Assembly (NCBI RefSeq): GCF_009650215.1
Contig: NZ_CP045851.1
Coordinates: 1,949,001-2,013,000 of the forward strand
Source: Actinomarinicola tropica
Lineage (GTDB): Bacteria; Actinomycetota; Acidimicrobiia; Acidimicrobiales; SKKL01
Reading direction: 5' to 3'
DNA length: 64,000 nucleotides
The position numbers and the translations under genes were made by a program. Shown here piece after piece: positions 49,902 to 61,819 of this stretch (position 1 is its first letter; each line of letters opens with the position of its first letter). The notes beneath the pieces were generated by a model, which saw only the letters and a list, made by a program, of their open reading frames with translations, was not told the DNA's origin and did not search any database.

Positions 49902-50621
49902 ATGAGCTCCAGCACCTCCGGACTCGAAGGTCGCCTCGACGAGGTCGCGTTCGCCGACGTCCTCCGCCTCCTCAGGGCGTCCCGACAGGATGGCACGCTC
50001 CACCTCGACGCAGAGACCTCTCACGTGGCCGTCGTCGTCGGCCCCGAGGTCGTGCGCATCGCGACAACCGGCCTCGAGGGGTTGCGCGCGGCCGTCGTGG
50101 GCAGCGGCGTCGTCGATCCGGGGGCCTGGGACGCTCTGGTCGAGGCCGGCGACGAGTCCCCCGGCGCGGCCCTGGAGCAGCTGGTCTCGAGCGGCGCCGA
50201 TCCCGACCGCCTACGGGCCCGCCTCTACGACCACACCGTGAACACGTTGTTCGAGCTGCTCCTGCCGAGCACCGCCCGGTTCGAGTTCCACGCCGGACGC
50301 TCCCACCCCTTCGCCGCCGATCCGGGCTACCCGTTCGAGGACGTGCTCGACGACGTCCGCCACCGCGTCGACGAGTGGCGCACCATCGCCGCCTCGATCC
50401 CGAGCACCTCGGTCGTGCTGCGTCGGGCCCCGCGCCTGCCGCTGACGAGCGGGCCGATCACCCTCAACCACGAGGAGTTCGAGCTCCTCGGGCTGCTCGA
50501 CGGCCGTCGCGACGTCGCCGAGCTCGTCCAGCTCCTCGGCATGTCGGCGTTCCGGGTGATGACCACACTGCACCGACTCATCACCCTCGGGGCCGTCCTC
50601 CCCCCGGACCGCGACGCATGA
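49902..50621 (+). CDS. DUF4388 (PATAN) domain protein
   Basis: 239 residues. GLEGRLDEVAFADVLRLLRASRQDGTL is the classic DUF4388/PATAN start, a domain found in response-regulator and GTPase-linked signalling of Myxococcus and cyanobacteria. The C-terminal half has helices resembling a winged helix (VAELVQLLGMSAFRVMTTLHRLI). It diverges from the conservon and may take part in the same signalling pathway, by position only. ATG start; the stop overlaps the aminopeptidase start (ATGA). Confidence 0.82.
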   Translation: MSSSTSGLEGRLDEVAFADVLRLLRASRQDGTLHLDAETSHVAVVVGPEVVRIATTGLEGLRAAVVGSGVVDPGAWDALVEAGDESPGAALEQLVSSGADPDRLRARLYDHTVNTLFELLLPSTARFEFHAGRSHPFAADPGYPFEDVLDDVRHRVDEWRTIAASIPSTSVVLRRAPRLPLTSGPITLNHEEFELLGLLDGRRDVAELVQLLGMSAFRVMTTLHRLITLGAVLPPDRDA

Positions 50622-51928
50622 GGTCGACGCCGATCACCGTCCCCGACGAGACGCGGGACCTGCTCCGCTTCATCGACGCCAGCCCGTCGCCGTACCACGC
50701 CGCCCGCAACGCCGCGGACCGACTGGTCGCGGGTGGGTTCACCGCACTCGACCCGATGGCGGCCTGGCCCGCCGGTGTCCGCCGCGGCGTCGTCACCGAC
50801 GGCGGCGCCCTGGTCGCGTGGTCCGCGCCGGCGGGCTCGCCGCCCGATGCCCCGTTCCGCATCGTGGGCGCCCACACGGACAGCCCGAACCTCCGGGTGA
50901 AGGCCAAGCCGGACGTGGGCCGCGCCGGGTGGCGCCAGATCGGCGTGGAGGTCTACGGCGGCGCCCTCGTCAACTCCTGGCTCGACCGCGACCTCGGCAT
51001 CTCCGGACGGGTCGCCGTCCGCGACGGGGAGTCGCCCCGGGGACACCGTGAGGTCCTGGTCAAGATCGACCGCCCGCTCCTGCGCGTGCCGCAGCTGGCC
51101 ATCCACCTCGATCGCGAGATCAACGAGAAGGGCCTGCAGCTCAACAAGCAGCAGCACCTCGTTCCGGTGTGGGGGCTCGGTGCCCGCCGCCCCGGCGAGC
51201 TCGTGGAGCTCGTCGCCGACGAGGCGGGGGTGGCCTGGCACGAGGTCCTCGGGTGGGACCTGATGCTCCACGACCTCACCCCCTCCGCGGTCGGCGGCGC
51301 CTCCGACGAGCTGATCTTCGCCCCGCGCCTCGACAACCTCCTCTCGTCGCACGCCGGCCTCGTCGCCATGGAGCGCCTGGCGCCCGCGTCGTCCGATGCC
51401 ATCGCGGTGCTGTGCCTCTTCGACCACGAGGAGGTCGGCAGCACGACGGCCACCGGTGCCGCCGGCACGCTGCTGGCCCGACTGCTCGAGCAGTCGGTCG
51501 CCGCCCGCGGCGGCGACCGCGCCGCCTTCCTCCGGGCCCTCTCCCGATCGACGTGCGTGTCCGCCGACATGGCCCACGCCACCCACCCCAACTACGCCGA
51601 GCGCCACGAGCCCGATCACCTCATCACCCTCGACGGCGGCCCGGTCATCAAGATCAACGCCAACCAGCGCTACGCCTCTGATGCCACGAGCGTGGCCACC
51701 TTCCAGCTGGCCTGCGACGACGCCGGCGTGCCCACGCAGCGCTACATCCACCGCACCGACCTCGCGTGCGGCTCGACGATCGGCCCGATCACCGCTGCGG
51801 GGCTGGCGGTCTCGACCGTGGACGTCGGCGTCCCCCAGCTCTCGATGCACTCCGCGCGCGAGCTGGCCAGCTCCACCGAGCCGGCGCGCTTCATCGCCGC
51901 GCTCACCGCGTTCCTCTCTCCCGCCTGA
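50618..51928 (+). CDS. apeB: M18 family aminopeptidase (aspartyl aminopeptidase)
   Basis: 436-residue metallopeptidase that removes N-terminal acidic residues; cytosolic and probably a large oligomer. Zinc ligands are visible: GAHTDSPNL (His), FAPRLDNL (Asp), FDHEEVGS (Glu-Glu) and QLSMHSARE (last His). ADMAHATHPNY and RTDLACGSTIGPI are further M18 motifs. Length and domain order match bacterial ApeB. Coupled to DUF4388 by ATGA, so a shared transcript is expected. Confidence 0.93.
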   Translation: MRSTPITVPDETRDLLRFIDASPSPYHAARNAADRLVAGGFTALDPMAAWPAGVRRGVVTDGGALVAWSAPAGSPPDAPFRIVGAHTDSPNLRVKAKPDVGRAGWRQIGVEVYGGALVNSWLDRDLGISGRVAVRDGESPRGHREVLVKIDRPLLRVPQLAIHLDREINEKGLQLNKQQHLVPVWGLGARRPGELVELVADEAGVAWHEVLGWDLMLHDLTPSAVGGASDELIFAPRLDNLLSSHAGLVAMERLAPASSDAIAVLCLFDHEEVGSTTATGAAGTLLARLLEQSVAARGGDRAAFLRALSRSTCVSADMAHATHPNYAERHEPDHLITLDGGPVIKINANQRYASDATSVATFQLACDDAGVPTQRYIHRTDLACGSTIGPITAAGLAVSTVDVGVPQLSMHSARELASSTEPARFIAALTAFLSPA

Positions 51929-51945
51929 ACCCGCGCCCGCGGCGG

Positions 51946-53271
51946 TCATGCGGGTGGTGTGGTGGGTGTGCGGTCGGGGCGGTGGATGGTCCAGGTGCCG
52001 TCGGGTGCGCGGGTGGGGTGCCAGCCGTGGTTCTTGAGCCGGTTGTGGGTGTCGCAGAGGACGGCGGCGTTGGCTTGGTCGGTGGGTCCGCCTCGGCTCG
52101 CGTCGATGGTGTGGTCGATCTGCAGGCCGCGTTGTCGGTGGCAGCCGTTCCAGATGCAGTGGAGGCCGTCGGGGTGGGCGAGGGTGTTGGTGAGCTCGGC
52201 AGCCTGGCGGGCCGAGCCGGTGAAGAACCGCCGGCGGCGTCCGAGGTCGATCACGTTGGAGTTGGCGTCGATGATCACGCGGCGGACCTGGCCGGCCAGT
52301 GCCGCGGCGACCACGTCGGACGGTGCGAGGGGCACCCCCGACACGGTGCGGCACACGCGCGGGCCGGTCGTCCGCGGCACCTGCGGGGCTTCAGCCGGCT
52401 CGCCGCCGGTGAGGGCGGTCTCGAAGGTGTGCAGGTCGACGACGATGTTGACCAGCGGCACGGCCCGGCCGACGGTGGAGGCCGCCCGGGCGAAGATCGC
52501 CGCGAGGGCGTCGGCGCCGCGCTGGGCGGCGCTGCGGGGCAGGTCGGCCTCGGTGGCGGCGTCACCGAGCCGGGCCCGGGCGTCGGCCCAGTCCGCGAGG
52601 AGCTCGGCGCGGGCGAACCACTCGAAGGTCTCCGCGATCGCGGCGCCCTGCAGGTTCCCGAACCCACCGGTGAGGGTGAACCCGCCGTCGTAGTTCTCCA
52701 CCACCGATCCGGTCCGTCGTGCGTGGGACGTCTCGGCGTCCTGTTCGGTGCCGTCGACATCGACCAGGCGTTCCCACTCCCGCAACCACCGACAGAACCC
52801 CTCATGGGAGTGGTCCCGTGCCATCTCCACGATCACGTCCTCCACCACCGGCAACAGGTCCACGACCCGCGGGTTGCGCGCCACCCGTGCCACCGCCCGC
52901 ACATGCCCGGTCGGCACCTCCCCCGCCCGATGCGCCGCAGCGAGGGCCGGCAGGTCCCGCAACACACGGGCGCAGTGCACCCGCGCCCGCGCCTCGCCGC
53001 GCGGCAACCGACCCAGGTGACGCACCGCCACCGCCGCCGACGCCAACCCGTCGACCGCGAACGCCTGCGAGCGGTCCAGATGCCCCGCCAGCTGATCGGT
53101 CACCGCGTCCAACCGGCGGCGCAGGACCTCCACGTCGCGCACCAACCGCATCTCCGAGCGGGCATCCAACGCATCGAGATCCACCGCCCCGAGCAGATCC
53201 ACCGCCCGCGCCAACGCCGACAACGCCCCAGCCACCGTCGACTCCGCTTCCCCGACATCGAGCAGCACCAC
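51946..53271 (-). CDS. DUF222 / HNH endonuclease (13E12 repeat family)
   Basis: 441 residues: DUF222 (about 1-300) with the ARARVHCARVLRDLP and GHVRAVARVARNP motifs, then an HNH nuclease (about 355-425). CIWNGCHRQRGLQIDH, with its metal-site His, and AAVLCDTHNRLKNH give the Cys and HNH residues. It belongs to the multi-copy family also called REP13E12 in actinobacteria, often next to insertion sequences. The GTG start with GGGAGG eight bases upstream is preferred over earlier GTGs. Confidence 0.88.
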   Translation of the reverse strand: MVLLDVGEAESTVAGALSALARAVDLLGAVDLDALDARSEMRLVRDVEVLRRRLDAVTDQLAGHLDRSQAFAVDGLASAAVAVRHLGRLPRGEARARVHCARVLRDLPALAAAHRAGEVPTGHVRAVARVARNPRVVDLLPVVEDVIVEMARDHSHEGFCRWLREWERLVDVDGTEQDAETSHARRTGSVVENYDGGFTLTGGFGNLQGAAIAETFEWFARAELLADWADARARLGDAATEADLPRSAAQRGADALAAIFARAASTVGRAVPLVNIVVDLHTFETALTGGEPAEAPQVPRTTGPRVCRTVSGVPLAPSDVVAAALAGQVRRVIIDANSNVIDLGRRRRFFTGSARQAAELTNTLAHPDGLHCIWNGCHRQRGLQIDHTIDASRGGPTDQANAAVLCDTHNRLKNHGWHPTRAPDGTWTIHRPDRTPTTPPA

Positions 53272-53660
53272 CGGTGCCACCTCCCACTCGCCATCGCCGC
53301 ACACAAGCCGGCACCGAAGCCGACGAACACGGCAGTCCGGACCCGGGGAAGAACGACCCGACCACCTGCACACCACCCTACGCAGGGGGTGTGACAGTCA
53401 TGATCGTTCTGCCGGTCCGGAACGGCGTGGAGGAGACTCCCCGGTGGTGGCCCCGCTGTTCGGGTCTGACCCTGGTGTGTGACTGACCGTCGTGTCCTTG
53501 TGATGAAGCGTCGGCCTGTCCTGGCGGGACCACCACCTCGGGATTCTCGGCCGTTCGGAGTGACCTCATAGGAGCCTGTTCGCGCAGACTCGCGACTGTC
53601 TTGTCCTCCCGGTCGGTGATCCCTCCGCCTCGTGTGACCGAACCGAAGGGATCGAAGACG
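53272..53660 (+). ncRNA. IS110 left non-coding region; possible bridge RNA locus
   Basis: 389 bp without a coding sequence, between the HNH gene and the IS110 transposase start. IS110 elements encode a structured bridge RNA in this position (5' non-coding region for the IS110 subgroup). TGACCTCATAGGAGCCT at 53561-53577 closely repeats the segment right after the transposase stop (TGACATCTATAGGAGCTT, 56285-56302), as expected if the RNA carries a copy of the element end. The exact left end and RNA boundaries cannot be read. Its promoter and structure were not tested. Confidence 0.35.
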
Positions 53661-53712
53661 ATGATGACAGCCCCAGCCCGCCGTGTCACCGGTGGGGTCG
53701 ACACCCACGGCG

Positions 53713-53720
53713 ATGTCCAT
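53713..53720. repeat. Target-site duplication, left copy
   Basis: ATGTCCAT; identical to 55125-55132 at the other end of the insertion, the 8-bp duplication expected of IS256 elements. The next base is also shared, so 9 bp cannot be excluded. Confidence 0.85.
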
Positions 53721-55124
53721 GATCGTGCCCCGTGGAGTGGTGGAAGTAGGTCTGTGAGCCTTGGCTTCGCCAGCCTGAGGTTACGCGGCTGGCAGCGCAG
53801 GGTTCGTCGTGGTCACCTCCGTGGGGTCGGGATCGATGGCGGCCATGCTCTCTTCGGAGAGGTAGCGGCGTTCGGAGATGGCCCAGTCGTCGTGTTGGTC
53901 GAGCAGGACGGCGCCGACGAGGCGGATGACCGAGGCGTCGTCGGGGAAGATCCCGACGACGTTGCTGCGGCGCTTGATCTCTTTGTTGATCCGCTCGAGG
54001 GGGTTCGTGGAGGCGATCTTGCGCCAATGCGCCCGGGGGAACGCGGTGTGGGCCAACACGTCCGCTTCGGCGCCCTCCAAGATCGCGGCGGCCTTGGGGA
54101 ACTGACCCTCGAGGACCCCGACGACCTCATGCAGCTGGGCCCGGCACCCCTCTGCGGAGGGCTGGGCGAAGATCGTGCGGACCGTCGCGGCGACCATGTC
54201 TTTGGACGCGGAGGGCACGGTGCCCAAGATGTTGCGCATCAGATGCACCTTGCAGCGCTGCCAGGACGCGCCGGCGAGCACTCGTGGGATCGACGCCTTC
54301 AGCCCGGCGTGGGCGTCGGAGATGACGAGGCGCACTCCGCTGAGGCCTCGGTCCTTGAGGCCGCGGAGGAACGCGGTCCAGAACACCTCGTCTTCGCTGT
54401 CGCCGACGTCGACACCGAGGACCTCGCGGTCACCATTGGCGGTGACACCGGTGGCGACCACGACGGCCCGGGAGATGATCCGGTGGTTGATGCGGGCCTT
54501 GATGTAGGTGGCGTCGAGGTACAGGTAGGGGAACTCGACGTGGTCCAGGCGTCGGGTGCGGAACACGGCGACCTCTTCGTCGATCCCCGCGCAGATCCGC
54601 GACACCGTCGACTTCGACACCCCCGACTCACACCCCAGCGCCTGGACCAGATCGTCGACCTTCCGGGTCGAGGTGCCGGTGGTGTAGGCGGTCATGATCA
54701 CACCCCACAGCGCCTTGTCGACCCGCCGGCGCGGCTCGAGCAGCGACGGGAAGAACGACCCGACCCGCACCTTGGGGATCCGCAGCTCCACATCACCCGC
54801 CGGCGTGGACAGCAGTCGGCTCCGAGAGCCGTTGCGCTGGTTGGTGCGGCTGTCGGTTCGCTCGTGGGGGCCGGCACCGATCGCGGCGGTGAGCTCGGCG
54901 TCGATCAACTCCTGCATCCCCGCCTCGAGCAGCCGGCGGAACAGCTCCTTGCTGTCACCATCGCCCAGACGCGCCAGCAGGTCAGCAACTCGGGCATCAT
55001 CGTCATGGGTCATCGCGTGAGTTCCTTCCAGTGAGTGCTTTCGCAGGTCTCACCAAGGCTCACGCGATGGCCCAACCCATGGGGGGACCGTCTCGCTACC
55101 TACACCACCTCACGGGACGCCAAC
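53721..55124 (-). mobile_element. Complete IS256-family insertion sequence (about 1404 bp)
   Basis: Bounded by ATGTCCAT direct repeats and carrying imperfect terminal inverted repeats. The left end begins GATCGTGCCCCGTG and the right end, read inward, GTTGGCGTCCCGTG; about 21 of 29 positions match. One intact transposase fills it, with 60 bp to the left end and about 110 bp to the right. It is inserted in the IS110 transposase opposite to its direction. Confidence 0.9.
53781..55013 (-). CDS. IS256-family (mutator-type) transposase
   Basis: 410-residue DDE transposase that appears intact. Motifs: YLDATYIKARIN (first Asp), VLVIS-type strand ending ISDAHAGLKASI (second Asp), and HWRKIASTNPLERINKEIKRR-type C-terminal segment with the catalytic Glu in NPLERINKE. 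N-terminal TNQRNGSRSRLL is the usual zinc-independent DNA-binding part. ATG start with GGAAGGAA seven bases upstream. Its integrity and the clean duplication suggest recent insertion. Confidence 0.93.
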   Translation of the reverse strand: MTHDDDARVADLLARLGDGDSKELFRRLLEAGMQELIDAELTAAIGAGPHERTDSRTNQRNGSRSRLLSTPAGDVELRIPKVRVGSFFPSLLEPRRRVDKALWGVIMTAYTTGTSTRKVDDLVQALGCESGVSKSTVSRICAGIDEEVAVFRTRRLDHVEFPYLYLDATYIKARINHRIISRAVVVATGVTANGDREVLGVDVGDSEDEVFWTAFLRGLKDRGLSGVRLVISDAHAGLKASIPRVLAGASWQRCKVHLMRNILGTVPSASKDMVAATVRTIFAQPSAEGCRAQLHEVVGVLEGQFPKAAAILEGAEADVLAHTAFPRAHWRKIASTNPLERINKEIKRRSNVVGIFPDDASVIRLVGAVLLDQHDDWAISERRYLSEESMAAIDPDPTEVTTTNPALPAA

Positions 55125-55132
55125 ATGTCCAT
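55125..55132. repeat. Target-site duplication, right copy
   Basis: ATGTCCAT, matching the left copy; flanks the element and continues directly into the IS110 reading frame (codons GTC CAT GTC GCT). Confidence 0.85.
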
Positions 55133-56330
55133 GTCGCTGCCGTTCTCGACAGCGCGACGGGCCGATGCCTCGGCGTCGAGTCCTTCCCCGCCGAGCGGGC
55201 CGGTTACGCGGCGTTGCACGCCTGGTTGGCCGGCCACGGCGAGGTTGACGCGGTCGGGGTCGAGTCGACCGGATCCTGGGGTGCGGGACTGTCCCGGCAC
55301 CTGACCGCCGCCGGCGTCGGGGTGATCGAGGTCGACCGGCCCGACCGCAAGACCCGCCGGCAGGAAGGCAAATCCGACCCCATCGACGCCCAGGCCGCCG
55401 CTCGGGCGGTGCTCTCGGGCCGGGCCACTGGCACGCCGAAGTCCGGGGACGGGCCCGTTGAAGCGATCCGGGCGCTCGAGATCGTCTGCCACGGCGCCAC
55501 CCGCGACCGCACCCGGGCGATCAACCAGTTCAAGGCTCTGCTCGTCACCGCCCCCGCCGACCTGCGAGAACACCTCGCCGGGCTCTCCTTCTCCCGACAG
55601 CTCGAGCTCGCCCGCCGCTTCCGCGACCACGACGACATCGTCGAGGCCCAGGTCCGGTTCGCGCTCAAGACCCTCGCCCGCAAGATCACGTTCCTCGACC
55701 AGCAGATCAACGACCTCGAAGCCCGCATGAACACCCTCACCGGCCAAGCCGCCCCGGCGCTCGCCGGAACCTTCGGCGTCGGCCCCCACGTCGCCGCCCA
55801 GCTCCTCGCCGCCCTCGGCGACAACCCCGAACGGATCAGCAGCGAAGCCGCGTTCGCCAAGCTCTGCGCCGCCTGCCCCATCCCCGCATCGAGCGGCAAG
55901 ACCACCCGCCACCGGCTCAACCCCGGCGGCGACCGGCGAGCGAACAACGCCCTCTACACCATCGTCCTGGTCCGCATGCGCCACCACGCACCGACACGCG
56001 CCTACGTCGCCCGCCGCACCGCCGAGGGCAAGACCCGCCTCGAGATCATGCGCTGCCTCAAGCGCTACGTCGCCCGCGAGATCTTCAACGTCGTCACCCG
56101 ACCGCCAGCGGTCCCCACCGGACACGACATCCGCCAACGACGCCTCCAAGCCGGCATCACCCTCACCGCCCTCGCCAACACCCTCGACATCGCCCCCATC
56201 CGGCTCTCACGCCTCGAACGAGGTCTCGACTTCAACAACGACCTCGCCACCCGAGCCGCCACCTGGCTCACCCAGAACGCCGCTTGACATCTATAGGAGC
56301 TTCACCCGAACCGGCCGAGCGGTGCGGTGC

Positions 56331-56360
56331 TTGACCTTCGCCGACGCCCGGACCTAGGTT
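56331..56360 (+). promoter_or_regulatory. Promoter of the DtxR-family gene
   Basis: TTGACC (56331-56336) and TAGGTT (56355-56360) are separated by 18 bp, a good actinobacterial sigma-70-type arrangement. The expected start near 56367 lies inside the inverted repeat that follows. About 31 bp after the IS110 fragment end, so the promoter is outside the transposon. Confidence 0.55.
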
Positions 56361-56376
56361 TCCGGCGCCCGAAAAC
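56358..56376. promoter_or_regulatory. Candidate operator for the DtxR-family regulator
   Basis: GTTTCCGGCGCCCGAAAAC is a 19-bp inverted repeat: GTTTCCGG against CCGAAAAC with a 3-base centre, 7 of 8 pairs. Length and placement over the -10/start region match DtxR/IdeR operators, though the bases differ from the iron-box consensus; autoregulation is the simplest reading. Confidence 0.5.
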
Positions 56377-56424
56377 TCTGATTGGGCCGCACGCGAGCGG
56401 CCCGGGGGATCGCCGAGAGCCGAC

Positions 56425-57135
56425 GTGCCGGACCAGCTGAGCCGCTCCGACCGAGAGATGCTGAAGGCCATCTACCGACAGACCGTCGGACACACCGCCG
56501 ACCCCGACCGGTTCGCTCACACCGGCGACCTCGCCGAGGCGATGGGCACCTCGCCCGGCACGGCCACGAGCCACGTCAAGCGCCTCGCCGACCGAGGTCT
56601 CGTGAGCCACACCCCCTACATCGGGGTCCGCCTCACCGACACCGGCCGTGCCGCGGCCGTCGGCGCGATCCGCCGCCACCGGCTGGTCGAGCGCTTCCTC
56701 GCCGACTACCTCGGCTACGAGTGGACCGACGCCGACCGGCTCGCCACCACCTTCGAGCACGACCTCCCCGACGAGGTCGAGCAGCGCCTCTTCCTCGCGC
56801 TCGGCGAGCCGACGAGCTGCCCTCACGGCTTCCCCATCCCCGCGGCGACCGACGTCGAGGTCGTCCCGCTCCCCCCGCTCTACGACCTCGAGCCCGGCGA
56901 TGTCGCCGTGGTCGCGGTCCCCGGGTCGACCGACCCGGCACTGGTCGAGTACCTCGACACCATCGGGCTCCGGCCCGGTGCCCACGTCGAGGTGCGCGAG
57001 AAAGAACCGTTCGACGGGCCCGTCCTGGTGCGCGTCGACGGGCAGGACCGAGCCCTGGGGCGCACCGTCGCCACCCAGGTGTTCGTCAGGGCGCTCGACG
57101 GCTCGCCGCCGCCGGGCGACCACCCAGCAGCCTGA
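56425..57135 (+). CDS. DtxR/MntR-family metal-dependent regulator
   Basis: 236 residues: an N-terminal winged helix (TGDLAEAMGTSPGTATSHVKRLADRGLV), a metal-binding and dimer domain (about 70-140) with RHRLVERFLADYLGY, FEHDLPDEVEQRL and TSCPHGFPI (Cys and His of the primary metal site), and a C-terminal FeoA/SH3-like domain (LEPGDVAVVAVPG). The residues that distinguish iron from manganese sensing were not resolved. GTG start; a promoter and operator lie immediately upstream. The pyrophosphatase gene follows after 28 bp. Confidence 0.9.
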   Translation: MPDQLSRSDREMLKAIYRQTVGHTADPDRFAHTGDLAEAMGTSPGTATSHVKRLADRGLVSHTPYIGVRLTDTGRAAAVGAIRRHRLVERFLADYLGYEWTDADRLATTFEHDLPDEVEQRLFLALGEPTSCPHGFPIPAATDVEVVPLPPLYDLEPGDVAVVAVPGSTDPALVEYLDTIGLRPGAHVEVREKEPFDGPVLVRVDGQDRALGRTVATQVFVRALDGSPPPGDHPAA

Positions 57136-57163
57136 CCCCAACCGTCTCGCAGAGGAGACCTTC

Positions 57164-59275
57164 GTGGAAGCAGTTCCCTACCTGGCCGTGTTGGCGGCGG
57201 TCGCCGCGCTCGGCCTCGCCGCCTTCTTCTACGGCAACGTCAAGAAGGCCAGCCCCGGCGACGAGCGCATGGTCTTCCTCATGACCGAGATCCAGAAGGG
57301 CGCCAAGGCGTTCCTGAAGCAGGAGTACACCTGGGTCTCGGGCTTCGTCGTGGTCATGGCGGTCCTCATCGCCCTGGTGATCGCACCGCTCGGCGCGGTG
57401 TCCTACGTCCTCGGCGCGGTGCTCTCCGCGGGTGCCGGCTACATCGGCATGACCGTGGCGACGATGGCCAACGCCCGCACGACCGAGGCCGCGAAGGACG
57501 GGCCCGCCAAGGCTCTGCCGCTCGCGTTCCGTGGCGGCGCGGTCATGGGCTTCTCGGTCGCCGGTCTGGCCCTGCTCGGCCTCAGCACCTGCTACATCCT
57601 CTTCGTCCTCGGCACGGGCGGTGAGGACGCGTTCGAGATCATCACCGCGTACGGCCTCGGTGGCTCGACCATCGCCCTGTTCTCTCGCGTCGGTGGCGGC
57701 ATCTACACCAAGGCCGCCGACGTCGGCGCCGACCTCGTCGGCAAGGTCGAGGCCGGCATCCCCGAAGACGACCCCCGCAACCCGGCCACGATCGCCGACA
57801 ACGTGGGCGACAACGTCGGCGACGTCGCCGGCATGGGCGCCGACCTCTTCGAGTCCTACGCCGGGTCGATCCTGGCGCCCATCTCGCTCACGGCATTCGC
57901 CCTGTCGATCGACGCCGACGCCATCGACGCCAGCATCCACGTCCCGCTGCTCATGTTCCCGATGGCCGTCGCGTTCGTCGGCATGATCGCCTCGATCATC
58001 GGCTCGTTCACCGTCCGGGGCGGCACGTCCACGGACAGCTCGGCGCTCTCGAAGGCGCTGCACCTCGGCACCAACATCGCGATGGGCCTCACGCTCGTCG
58101 CCACCGTCGGCCTCGCATACTGGCTGTTCGCAGGCGACGACTTCGAGGCCCCCTACGGCCTCGCCGTCTCGGTCATCGGTGGTCTCGTCGTCGGCTGGGC
58201 TCTCGGCAAGACGGCGGAGTTCTACACCTCGGACCACTACGGCCCGGTGAAGAAGATCGCCAACCAATCCGAGACCGGCCCTGCCACGACGATCCTCGGC
58301 GGCATCTCCGCCGGCATGGTGTCGGTCGCCGCCTCCGTCGCCCTCATCGTGATCGGCGTCGGCGTCGCCTACTGGGGCGGGCAGATCACCCTCGAGCAGC
58401 TCGCTCTCGACAACCCGGCCATCCCGGTCGGCTTCGGCGGCATCTATGGCATCGCCCTGGCGGCCATCGGCATGCTCGCCACCACCGGCGTCGTCGTCTC
58501 CGTCGACGCCTACGGCCCCATCGCCGACAACGCCGGCGGCATCGCCGAGATGGCCGAGCTCGACCCGTCGGTCCGCGAGGTCACCGATGCCCTCGACTCG
58601 CTCGGCAACACCACCGCTGCGGTGGCCAAGGGCTTCGCGGTCGGCTCGGCGGCGCTCACGGCGCTGGCCCTGTTCAAGTCGTTCGAGTTCGCCGTGGCCA
58701 AGGCCGGCGGCGAGCTGTCGCTGAACGTCGGCGAGGTCGAGGTGTTCATCGGCCTGATCATCGGTGCCGGCCTCCCGTTCCTCTTCGCAGCCCTCACGAT
58801 CGACGCCGTCGGTCGCGCCGCCCAGCAGATGATCGAGGAGGTCCGCCGGCAGTTCCGGGAGATCCCGGGCCTCCGCGAGGGCAAGCCGGGCGTCAACCCG
58901 GACTCGGCCCGTTGCGTGGCCATCTCGACCAAGGCCTCGCTGCGAGAGATGGTCATCCCCGGCTCCCTCGCCGTGGTCGTGCCGCTCGTCGTCGGGTTCA
59001 TCGACGTCGGCGCCCTCGGCGGCCTCCTGGCCGGCGCCCTCGTCACCGGCTTCGCGCTCGCCATCTTCATGGCCAACGCCGGCGGCGCGTGGGACAACGC
59101 CAAGAAGTACATCGAGGCCGGCCACCACGGCGGCAAGGGCTCCGACCCGCACAAGGCCGCCGTCGTCGGCGACACGGTGGGCGACCCCTTCAAGGACACG
59201 TCCGGTCCGGCGATGAACATCCTCATCAAGGTGATGACCATCGTGGCCCTGGTGTTCGCCTCGGCCTTCGTCTGA
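57164..59275 (+). CDS. hppA: Membrane-bound proton/sodium-pumping pyrophosphatase (HppA)
   Basis: 703-residue integral membrane pyrophosphatase coupling PPi hydrolysis to ion transport. [11 protein letters not shown] and [19 protein letters not shown] carry the PPi/Mg site, and the C-terminal [14 protein letters not shown] is equally diagnostic. At the position that sorts the family, the motif reads [10 protein letters not shown]: Ala where K+-independent pumps have Lys, so the K+-dependent class is predicted. H+ or Na+ specificity is not settled. GTG start with GAGGAG about eight bases upstream; followed by a candidate hairpin terminator. Confidence 0.93.
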
Positions 59276-59288
59276 TCCTGTCCGCTCC

Positions 59289-59334
59289 CGCCGGGCGGGC
59301 TCCGTCGACCGATGTCGGCGGGGTCCGCCCGGCG
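59289..59334 (+). terminator. Candidate hairpin terminator after hppA
   Basis: CGCCGGGCGG (59289-59298) pairs perfectly with CCGCCCGGCG (59325-59334) around a 26-base loop, 14 bp after the hppA stop. No T-run, common for actinobacterial terminators. Confidence 0.5.
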
Positions 59335-59384
59335 GCGCGTCCGGGTGCTGTGCAGACCAGAGATCGTTCAGGCACACTAACTAT

Positions 59385-59828
59385 GTGCCCGTCGAACGAA
59401 TCTCCCGCGAGGCCGCCCACGCCGCCGCCGTCCTGGCCAAGAGCGTCGAGCGCGCCCTGCACGACGCCGACCTCTCGCCGTCGCAGTACCGGCTGCTCGT
59501 CTACCTGAGCGATGCCCCCTCGGCCGCCACCGCCCTGGCCAAGAAGCTGTCGGTCACGCGGCCGAGCCTGACCGCGCTCGTCGACACGCTCGAGCAGCGC
59601 GGCTACGTGGTGCGGGGCAACGACCCGACCGACCGGCGCCGGGTGACCCACGAGATCTCCGCCGAGGGCCGCGCCGCGGTGGCCCGGGCCGACGCCACGA
59701 TCCAGCAGCGGCTGGGCACCTGGCTCGACGCCCACCTCACCCCCGACGAGGTGGCGGCCGTCAACACCGGGCTCGAGCTCTGGCTCACCGCCCTCCGCAA
59801 CGCCAGCGCCCGCCGGGTCGAGGCGTGA
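59385..59828 (+). CDS. MarR-family transcriptional regulator
   Basis: 147-residue winged-helix regulator. LSPSQYRLLVYLSDAPSAATALAKKL and SVTRPSLTALVDTLEQRGYV form the HTH; DPTDRRRVTHEISAEGRA is the wing. GTG start; the overlapping ATG is out of frame. Its stop overlaps the first ABC transporter gene (GTGA), so it is probably the local repressor of the exporter operon. Confidence 0.9.
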   Translation: MPVERISREAAHAAAVLAKSVERALHDADLSPSQYRLLVYLSDAPSAATALAKKLSVTRPSLTALVDTLEQRGYVVRGNDPTDRRRVTHEISAEGRAAVARADATIQQRLGTWLDAHLTPDEVAAVNTGLELWLTALRNASARRVEA

Positions 59829-61819
59829 GGAGCACCCTCGAGCGCGACGTCGAGGCCCTGGGCACGCGCGACCAGGCGGCGCCCCGCTCCCCGTTCGAGC
59901 CGTTCTCGGTCGAGGAGCGCCACCCCGCGCCGCTCGCGGGGATCGACCCCGACCGGGAGAAGGGGTGGATCCGCCGGATCGCCCCGATGCTGCGGGCCCG
60001 CCGCCACCTCTTCGCCGCGGCGCTGTCGCTGTCGGCCCTGTCGATGGTCGCGAACGTCGCGGTCCCCCGGGTCGTCGGCCTCACGATCAACGAGGCGCTC
60101 GACGCCCGCACGGCCGAGCTCACCACGTTCGTCTGGATCCTGCTCGGCCTCGCCGTGGCGCGCGGCGTGACCACGCTGGCGTCGCGGTTCTTCCTCTTCA
60201 AGGTGGCCTACGGGCTGGAGTACGACCTGCGGGTCACGGTCTACGAGCACCTCTCCCGGCTGTCGTTCTCCTACTTCGACCGGGTGCAGTCGGGACAGCT
60301 GATCTCCCGCGCCAACTCCGACATCCGGTCGGTCCAGATGTTCCTCACGTTCGCGCCGATGATCTCGCTCCAGGCGCTCACGTTCGTGCTCGCCTTCGGG
60401 CTCATGCTCACGGTGCACGTGCCGCTCACGTTGGTCGCGCTGCTCCCCCTGCCCTTCGTGTTCCTGGTCGGCGTGCGGATGCGGTCGTTCATGTTCCCGA
60501 TCTCCTGGGTCGTGCAGTCGCGCACCGCCGACGTGGCGACGATCGTCGAGGAGGACGTGAGCGGCATCCGGGTGGTGAAGTCCTTCGCCGCCGAGCAGCA
60601 GCAGGTGAACGCGCTCGCGGCCGCCGCCGACCGCCTGCGCTGGGCGACGACCAAGCAGATCGACCTGCGCGCCACCTACGCGCCGATGATGGAGAACCTG
60701 CCGCGGCTCGGCACCGCGATCGTGCTGCTCTACGGCGGCTGGCTCGCCATCGACGGGGCGATCCGGATCGGCGACATCGTCACCTTCACCAGCTACGTCG
60801 TGATGCTCCAGGCGCCGTTTCGCATGATCGGCATGCTGATGATGATGAGCCAGCGCGCCGCGGCGTCGGCGGCGCGGATCTACGAGATCCTCGACGAGCG
60901 GCCGGAGATCGTCGACCGCCCGGGCGCCGTCGACCTCGTCGATCCGGTCGGCGACGTCCGGTTCCGCGACGTGCACTTCTCCTACGCCAGCGGACACCAG
61001 GTGCTCGACGGCCTGGACCTGGAGGTCGGGGCCGGCGAGACCGTCGCCATCGTCGGCCGGACCGGGAGCGGCAAGTCCACCGTCGTCCGCCTGCTCACCC
61101 GCTTCTACGACGTCGACGACGGGGCGGTCGAGATCGACGGGCACGACGTCCGCGACCTCACCCTGCGCAGCCTGCGGCACCACGTGGGGATCGTCCTCGA
61201 CGAGCCGTTCCTCTTCTCCACCTCGATCCGGGACAACATCGCCTACGGACGACCGGACGCGCCGATGGAGGAGGTCGTCGCCGCGGCGGCCGCCGCCAAC
61301 GCCGCCGAGTTCGTCGACCGGCTCCCCGACGGCTACGACACGCTGGTCGGCGAGAGGGGCTACACGCTGTCGGGCGGCCAGCGCCAGCGCCTGGCCATCG
61401 CACGCACGCTGGTCGTCAACCCCAAGGTGCTCGTGCTCGACGACGCCACCAGCGCGATCGACGTGCGGATCGAGGAGCAGATCCACGAGGCGCTCGCCCG
61501 CCTGATGGCGGACCGCACCACCATCGTCATCGCCCACCGCCTGTCGACGATCAGCCTGGCCGACCGCGTCGCCCTCCTCGAGGGCGGACGGATCGTCGCC
61601 CAGGGCACGCACGCCGACCTGATGGCGGAGGAGCCGCGCTACCAGGCCGTGCTCGCCCACCTCGAGGAGGACCAGGCGGCCCGTGCGGCGGCCCACGCCG
61701 CGCGCGCCGAGGCCCAGGCGACACGCGCGGCGGCGCTCGACCGGCTCCAGCAGCGCGCGACCGGCGGCGGGTTCGACGGGCCCGGCGGGATGCCGGGCGG
61801 CTTCGGAGGGGGACGCTGA
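59825..61819 (+). CDS. ABC exporter half-transporter, degenerate-site subunit
   Basis: 664 residues: six-helix membrane domain (about 60-335), NBD (350-590), and a Gly/Ala-rich tail. Walker A GRTGSGKST and signature LSGGQRQRLAIA are canonical. The Walker B motif ends LVLDDATSAID with Asp in place of the catalytic Glu, and the Q-loop reads VLDEPFLF rather than PQEPFLF. This is the pattern of the non-catalytic subunit in heterodimeric exporters. GTG start coupled to marR; its partner begins at the stop codon. Drug or lipid export is likely; substrate unknown. Confidence 0.92.
   Translation: MRSTLERDVEALGTRDQAAPRSPFEPFSVEERHPAPLAGIDPDREKGWIRRIAPMLRARRHLFAAALSLSALSMVANVAVPRVVGLTINEALDARTAELTTFVWILLGLAVARGVTTLASRFFLFKVAYGLEYDLRVTVYEHLSRLSFSYFDRVQSGQLISRANSDIRSVQMFLTFAPMISLQALTFVLAFGLMLTVHVPLTLVALLPLPFVFLVGVRMRSFMFPISWVVQSRTADVATIVEEDVSGIRVVKSFAAEQQQVNALAAAADRLRWATTKQIDLRATYAPMMENLPRLGTAIVLLYGGWLAIDGAIRIGDIVTFTSYVVMLQAPFRMIGMLMMMSQRAAASAARIYEILDERPEIVDRPGAVDLVDPVGDVRFRDVHFSYASGHQVLDGLDLEVGAGETVAIVGRTGSGKSTVVRLLTRFYDVDDGAVEIDGHDVRDLTLRSLRHHVGIVLDEPFLFSTSIRDNIAYGRPDAPMEEVVAAAAAANAAEFVDRLPDGYDTLVGERGYTLSGGQRQRLAIARTLVVNPKVLVLDDATSAIDVRIEEQIHEALARLMADRTTIVIAHRLSTISLADRVALLEGGRIVAQGTHADLMAEEPRYQAVLAHLEEDQAARAAAHAARAEAQATRAAALDRLQQRATGGGFDGPGGMPGGFGGGR

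What the first reader, a model, noticed from the sequence alone, without database searches (positions are those of the whole stretch)
53561..56302. Candidate IS110 bridge RNA with a copy of the element end
TGACxxC(T)ATAGGAGC occurs upstream of the split transposase (53561-53575) and immediately after its stop (56285-56300). In bridge-RNA-guided IS110 elements, the RNA's donor loop matches element ends, which is the pattern seen. Here the RNA gene would be separated from a dead transposase and may still be usable in trans.
Basis: inference. Interest (0 to 1): 0.6.

Follow-up and report, generated by a model that had tools for sequence, protein, structure and literature searches.

The report
IS110 bridge RNA aimed at damage promoter
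The repeat is the donor guide of a real bridge RNA in an IS110 jumping gene whose enzyme gene was broken by another insertion; its target guide matches the promoter box that switches on DNA-repair genes in this bacterium, and all three related elements in the genome sit on such boxes.

Summary
Observation confirmed. Window 53396-56303 is one IS110-group element; an IS256-type element (53722-55124, 9-bp target duplication) breaks its recombinase. The same genome holds an intact copy, so both repeat copies lie inside the element: one in the long left non-coding end, one at the right end.
The left end encodes a bridge RNA (structured part about 53443-53623). Across 49 homologous loci all four guides match their own element's ends or flanks far better than other elements' (z 13.2, 12.7, 11.6, 7.8; still 4.9-7.4 after thinning to under 55% protein identity). 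Stems show compensatory changes. ATAGGAGC (53568-53575) is the left donor guide. Joining RE to LE makes a 17-nt-spaced promoter.
New here: the target guide reads a DNA-damage promoter box (P1/RecA-NDp class). The box occurs 15 times in this genome, upstream of recA, radA, sbcD-like and DUF222 genes, and all three elements the RNA model finds sit on one. A Streptomyces relative's guide carries the classical form of the box.
A member of a known kind; I found no report of this target. No experiment was done; mobilisation in trans is untested. In passing: another IS110 inserts into bridge-RNA donor guides in four genomes.

The parts
53396..56303 (+). IS110-group element (about 1.5 kb without the inserted IS256). 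End assignment uncertain by one base: the C at 53395 and at 56303 is shared by both junctions.
   Evidence: Identity to the intact second copy L009 begins and ends here. The box on the left, the joined flanks of relatives and the junction-promoter spacing fix the same edges.
53375..53396 (-). Target-site remnant: TGTCACACCCCCTGCGTAGGGT, the DNA-damage promoter box (P1/RecA-NDp class) of the DUF222 gene 51946-53376; its first T is now supplied by the element's first base.
   Evidence: 15 boxes of this form genome-wide, 0 in the reversed control (stricter form 13); upstream of recA, radA, sbcD-like and DUF222 genes; consensus tTGTCRgtg-8nt-TannnT in PMC5656591.
53396..53660 (+). Left end (LE), long non-coding region 5' of the recombinase gene
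   Evidence: 99% identical in the intact copy; conserved in relatives.
53443..53623 (+). Bridge RNA: target-binding domain about 53443-53537, donor-binding domain about 53540-53623
   Evidence: MFE fold; consensus structure with 13 of 24 pairs changed on both sides; covariance model hit 53454-53616, E 1.5e-27, with this copy among the training sequences.
53474..53483 (+). Left target guide (LTG) GGTGTGTGAC, matches the left flank GGGGTGTGAC (53386-53395)
   Evidence: LTG-flank matching across 47 loci z=12.7 against permutation.
53498..53509 (+). Right target guide region (RTG) TTGTGATGAAGC, pairs with GCTTCA at the RE/right-flank junction
   Evidence: RTG-right flank pairing across 33 loci z=11.6. 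Weak in this copy beyond GCTTCA.
53568..53575 (+). Left donor guide (LDG) ATAGGAGC = the finding's first repeat
   Evidence: Identical to the RE at 56293-56300; LDG and RE change together in relatives (GGGGC, GGAAC, GAAGC variants; z=7.8).
53594..53600 (+). Right donor guide (RDG) GACTGTC, reverse complement of LE start GACAGTC (53393-53399)
   Evidence: RDG-LE pairing across 49 loci z=13.2. One base 5' (53593) is C here but T in the intact copy, where the match extends to 8 nt.
53661..53721 (+). First 20 codons of the IS110 recombinase, with the first catalytic Asp (GVDTHGDVH)
   Evidence: Sequence; intact 404-aa product in L009.
53722..55124 (-). Inserted IS256/Mutator-family element (1403 bp, imperfect terminal inverted repeats); transposase 53781-55013 (-)
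   Evidence: PF00872 E 2.6e-132; other copies in the genome; 9-bp duplication ATGTCCATG at 53713-53721 and 55125-55133.
55134..56287 (+). Rest of the IS110 recombinase (part of open frame 55031-56287; DEDD_Tnp_IS110, Transposase_20, C-terminal HTH_3); lacks the first catalytic Asp
   Evidence: Pfam; ORF.
56284..56303 (+). Right end (RE) TTGACATCTATAGGAGCTTC, with -35 box TTGACA and the left-donor sequence = the finding's second repeat
   Evidence: in the circular form TTGACA-17 nt-CATGAT.

Best explanation
The left end of this IS110 element encodes a bridge RNA. Its donor loop reads the element's own ends: ATAGGAGC matches the right end and GACTGTC pairs with the left end. Its target loop reads the host site GGGGTGTGAC, the distal edge of the DNA-damage promoter box TGTCACACCCCC...TAGGGT. 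After excision as a circle, the abutted ends form a TTGACA-17-CATGAT promoter that would transcribe RNA and recombinase. The recombinase would then join the circle into another such box between C and A, without a target duplication. Because the element begins with A, the T of TGTC is restored and the host promoter box stays whole. In the window copy an IS256-type element has killed the recombinase gene but left RNA gene and ends in place; an intact copy 1.2 Mb away could move it in trans. Shown by sequence: anatomy, intact copy, guide-end co-variation, RNA structure, junction promoter spacing, box occupancy. Inferred: transcription, RNA binding by the protein, strand exchange, trans mobilisation, damage control by PafBC.
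For: Intact copy in the same genome with the repeat inside. Recombinase domains and similarity to the solved bridge recombinases IS621 and ISCro4. Permutation tests of all four guides on up to 49 loci: RDG z=13.2, LTG 12.7, RTG 11.6, LDG 7.8; none (RDG, LTG, RTG) or at most 3 (LDG) of 5000 permutations reach the observed value in any set, including the one thinned to under 55% protein identity. Stem co-variation, 92% of cells paired, 0/500 shuffles for four of five measures. A -10-like hexamer 17-18 nt from TTGAC in 28/30 reconstructed junctions. 15 genome boxes versus 0 control, next to recA, radA, sbcD-like and DUF222 genes. All three elements found by the RNA model sit on a box. TAnnnT at the exact P1 spacing in 7/47 left flanks and 0-1 at other offsets. 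The joined flanks of Streptomyces copy L112 give TTGTCAGTGGCGGTGGCTACGGT, matching the published consensus.
Against: No RNA or protein experiment. The MFE of the single sequence is unremarkable (z -1.1); the support is comparative. RTG pairing in the window copy is short. Only one C, not a dinucleotide, is shared by both junctions across relatives. The window copy's RDG has one mismatch. The empty site in the sister genome is too diverged to read base by base. Damage induction of the boxes is inferred from motif and gene content only.
Confidence: 0.9

Rival explanations
1. The repeat is a subterminal binding site for the transposase protein (a short direct repeat at both ends) and no guide RNA is involved.
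For: A conserved ATAGGAGC near both ends would look like this; it is among the most conserved stretches of the left end.
Against: The two copies are not at symmetric positions (172 nt and 3 nt from the ends). Three further element-specific matches (RDG-LE, LTG-left flank, RTG-right flank) and paired stems are unexplained by protein sites.
Confidence: 0.03
2. The guide-end matches are only shared ancestry of related elements, and the insertion at damage boxes is hitch-hiking with duplicated DUF222 genes.
For: Several boxes precede DUF222 paralogues and two of the three elements sit beside DUF222 genes; the homologs are related.
Against: Permutations use other family members as controls, and the signal survives thinning to under 55% identity. 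The intact copy lies upstream of a sigma-factor gene, with a different spacer in its box. Relatives in other genera sit at boxes with unrelated spacers.
Confidence: 0.05
3. The bridge RNA is real but the window copy is a fossil: dead in cis and no longer mobilised in trans.
For: Recombinase gene broken; RDG mismatch at 53593; third copy decayed.
Against: An intact 404-aa recombinase with its own bridge RNA exists in the genome. The window copy's ends and its LTG, RTG and LDG are unchanged from it.
Confidence: 0.35

Closest known systems
IS621 (IS110 group) and its bridge RNA, PMC11208160 / PDB 8WT6
   Same: DEDD recombinase with Transposase_20 domain, long LE with an RNA of two internal loops; LTG/RTG and LDG/RDG arranged left guide 5', right guide 3'; promoter rebuilt at the RE-LE junction.
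   Different: Only remote protein similarity (E 3e-6); C-terminal HTH here; invariant C instead of a CT core; the target is a damage promoter box, whereas IS621 goes to repetitive extragenic palindromes.
ISEc21 and other seekRNA elements, PMC11187229
   Same: RNA from the non-coding end selects the target; no target duplication; RNA works in trans; the target can be a conserved functional motif (codons of a transposase DDE residue).
   Different: Different target and RNA sequence. One side branch found here (L021, L030, L033, L045, L102) appears to target IS3 transposase codons, comparable to ISEc21.
P1 / RecA-NDp promoters of actinobacteria (PafBC regulon), PMC5656591, PMC6789036
   Same: tTGTCR...TannnT with the same spacing, in front of recA and other repair genes.
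   Different: The box in this genome reads TGTCACACCCC where the classical one has TTGTCAGTG; its regulation here is not shown.

Membership tests
IS110 group bridge-RNA element | DEDD_Tnp_IS110 plus Transposase_20 recombinase | tested here: met
   PF01548 and PF02371 over cut-off in the intact and the broken copy.
IS110 group bridge-RNA element | Long left and short right non-coding end (opposite of IS1111) | tested here: met
   LE 265 nt, RE 16 nt after the stop codon.
IS110 group bridge-RNA element | Structured RNA in LE with a target loop and a donor loop | tested here: met
IS110 group bridge-RNA element | LTG, RTG, LDG and RDG complementary to target and donor, co-varying across relatives | tested here: met
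   Permutation tests.
IS110 group bridge-RNA element | Promoter rebuilt at the RE-LE circle junction | tested here: met
   Spacing 17-18 nt in 28/30 loci, in silico only.
IS110 group bridge-RNA element | Dinucleotide core shared by donor and target | tested here: inconclusive
   Only one C is common to both junctions in all relatives; CA fits this genome's copies but not others.
IS110 group bridge-RNA element | RNA bound by the recombinase; RNA-guided recombination | not testable with these tools
   Needs in vitro or plasmid assays.
IS1111 group | RNA in the right end, long subterminal inverted repeats | tested here: not met
   RE is 16 nt; the RNA is in LE.
Curated RNA family in Rfam 15 | Match to a curated covariance model | tested here: not met
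   No relevant match in 50000-60000 at E up to 1; a model was built here instead.
P1/RecA-NDp damage promoter (target site) | tTGTCR with 12 nt between GTC and TannnT | tested here: met
   15 sites; spacing equals the consensus quoted in PMC5656591.
P1/RecA-NDp damage promoter (target site) | Upstream of recA and repair genes | tested here: met
   RecA TIGR02012 over cut-off; RadA TIGR00416 best match (fragment given); SbcD-like.
P1/RecA-NDp damage promoter (target site) | PafBC-dependent induction by DNA damage | not testable with these tools
   Two neighbouring WYL-domain matches that could be pafBC at C1:1905853-1906997; not identified further.

The most novel reading that the evidence does not exclude
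This actinobacterial IS110 clade has bridge RNAs specialised for the host's DNA-damage promoter box. The target guide follows the host lineage's version of the box (TGTCACACC in this genome, TTGTCAGTGGC in Streptomyces), and insertion restores the box, so the element docks next to repair-type genes without breaking their control and may share their damage response.
Probability: 0.6. Interest if true: 0.65.

Novelty: new member of a known kind. Interest (0 to 1): 0.5.

Why it matters
It gives an actinobacterial bridge-RNA system with an intact recombinase, a readable guide set, and a natural target that is short, repeated in the genome and functionally defined. It shows RNA-guided insertion tuned to a host regulatory motif that is likely to be present in any new host of the same lineage, and it raises a testable question: whether the element keeps or borrows damage control of the neighbouring gene. 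The broken window copy is a natural test of trans mobilisation.

Tried and rejected
Rfam scan: no bridge-RNA family matched. The empty site in the sister genome was too diverged to read single bases, so edges were taken from copy comparison, the box consensus and junction promoter spacing. The viral-contig scan gave no relative. First versions of the guide extraction mis-picked the RDG in many loci (superseded, where a few guides are still mis-cut, which weakens rather than strengthens the signal). A CT or other fixed dinucleotide core was sought and not found: only C is common. L104/L105/L106 sit in similar plasmid contexts, so they were used as one locus. Single-sequence folding energy was not informative (z -1.1). 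Literature: no paper in the held library has both IS110 and PafBC; subscription papers and supplementary target logos were not searchable.

Full report
What is there. The window repeat TGACCTCATAGGAGC (53561-53575) / TGACATCTATAGGAGC (56285-56300) is real and unique in the window. The open frame 55031-56287 is an IS110-family recombinase (DEDD_Tnp_IS110, Transposase_20, C-terminal HTH_3). Its first 20 codons lie at 53661-53721, and between them sits an IS256/Mutator-family element, 53722-55124, with a 9-bp target duplication ATGTCCATG and further copies elsewhere in the genome. The broken gene lost the codons for the first catalytic Asp (GVDTHGD; role inferred from the IS110 family), so the window copy is most likely dead in cis.

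Intact copy. The same genome carries an uninterrupted copy on the other strand at C1:3198336-3199860 (L009), 404 aa, 99-100% identical. Identity runs from the GGGGTGTGAC around 53386 to TTCACC at 56306, so both repeats are inside the element: one 172 nt into a 265-nt left end, the other 3 nt from the right edge.

Bridge RNA. The left end of relatives was collected from whole genomes, GTDB contigs and plasmids. The RNA has a target-binding stem-loop (53443-53537) and a donor-binding stem-loop (53540-53623) in the single-sequence fold. In an alignment of 20 sequences, 24 consensus pairs are 92% paired, 13 show changes on both sides, and 0 of 500 shuffles reach the observed cells paired, double-changed cells, pair types or covariation score. 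Each guide was cut out by RNA motifs and scored against its own element's end or flank and against those of all other elements. RDG against LE: mean score 14.98 versus 11.47, z 13.2. LTG against left flank: 6.62 of 8 identical versus 4.70, z 12.7. RTG against right flank: 12.15 versus 5.61, z 11.6, and z 10.4 on the five bases beyond the element. LDG against RE: 7.79 of 8 versus 7.43, z 7.8. With proteins thinned to under 55% identity the z-values are 7.4, 7.1, 6.3 and 4.9. Related elements share ancestry, so z is not an exact probability, but the controls are relatives too. Examples: L032 RDG GTGTAAGTC / LE GACTTACAT; L028 ATGAGAGTC / GACTCTCAT; L094 RTG complement TTCATATCC / RE and flank TTCATATCC; L040 LDG GGAAC / RE GGAAC. 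The upstream repeat of the finding is therefore the left donor guide. A covariance model built here finds it in the window at E 1.5e-27 (the window copy was one of the training sequences).

Edges and circle. Joining RE (...TTC) to LE (AGTC...) puts TTGACA 17 nt from CATGAT. Across 30 relatives a NANNNT hexamer lies 17 or 18 nt after the -35-like hexamer in 28 (20 at 17 and 8 at 18), in line with the promoter rebuilt in IS621 circles (PMC11208160). Only a C is common to both junctions in all relatives, so the crossover core is left open.

Target. The left flank, read backwards, is TGTCACACCCCCTGCGTAGGGT in the window and TGTCACACCCCGGGCGTACGAT at the intact copy. The pattern GTCRCACCC-N6-TANNNT occurs 15 times in the 3.7-Mb genome and never in the reversed control (the stricter form 13 times). 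These boxes lie just upstream of recA, radA, an sbcD-like gene, a DUF2786 gene, a sigma-70 factor gene and several DUF222 genes. The published LexA-independent damage promoter is tTGTCRgtg-8 nt-TannnT (PMC5656591), which has exactly this spacing. The RNA model finds three elements in the genome: the two copies and a third, decayed one (about 50% protein identity, L152). The third also sits on a box, GGGGGTGTGAC|ACTCATGATGG. Among 47 relatives TAnnnT falls at the P1 offset in 7 left flanks and in 0-1 at each other offset. The joined flanks of a Streptomyces plasmid copy (L112) read TTGTCAGTGGCGGTGGCTACGGT, and its LTG reads GCCACTGAC. Insertion leaves the box whole, because the element's first base replaces the displaced one. 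Other members of the wider family have other targets, so this is a property of part of the clade.

Mechanism and limits. Best reading: a standard IS110 bridge-RNA system whose target loop is set to the host's damage promoter box. Not shown here: transcription, binding, recombination, PafBC dependence, and mobilisation of the broken copy in trans. The window RDG differs by one base from the intact copy (C for T at 53593), shortening its match with LE from 8 to 7 nt.

What is known. Bridge or seek RNAs are predicted in most IS110 and IS1111 elements (PMC11208160, PMC11187229), and each IS has its own target. The element itself is thus a new member of a known kind; the target class was not found in the held literature, which excludes most subscription papers.

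Noticed in passing
L012/L153 (G001:C68:16179-17475), L148/L165 (G165:C21), L154 (G195:C86); one junction only in L075 (G289): A second IS110-family element (1274-1289 bp, 344-aa recombinase in L012) is inserted at the same point and orientation inside the left donor guide of the bridge-RNA gene of homologs of the window element (TGACCTCATAG / insert / GGAGCCTG). Its own RNA carries CTCATAG and, in two of three, GGCTCC stretches that fit this target: apparently an RNA-guided element that disables other bridge RNAs.
   Followed up: partly
L021, L030, L033, L045, L102: A side branch of the family whose joined flanks read as a conserved IS3-type transposase motif (DSYDNA...E): LTG/RTG appear set to transposase catalytic codons, as reported for ISEc21.
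   Followed up: partly
window 55031-56287; L009, L041, L042, L112: Recombinases of part of this clade end in an XRE-like helix-turn-helix domain (HTH_3/HTH_31) after Transposase_20; the relatives L105 and L032 show none in Pfam.
   Followed up: partly
L152, C1:2196957 onward: A third, decayed IS110 element in the same genome with a deletion in its donor loop and a broken recombinase, also on a damage promoter box upstream of a DUF222 gene.
   Followed up: yes
C1:1905853-1906997: Two neighbouring WYL-domain matches on one strand, candidates for pafB/pafC.
   Followed up: no
L108 compared with L107/L109: Streptomyces plasmid copies with the same recombinase, of which one has its left end replaced upstream of about 174 nt before the gene while the rest of the RNA gene is kept.
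   Followed up: no
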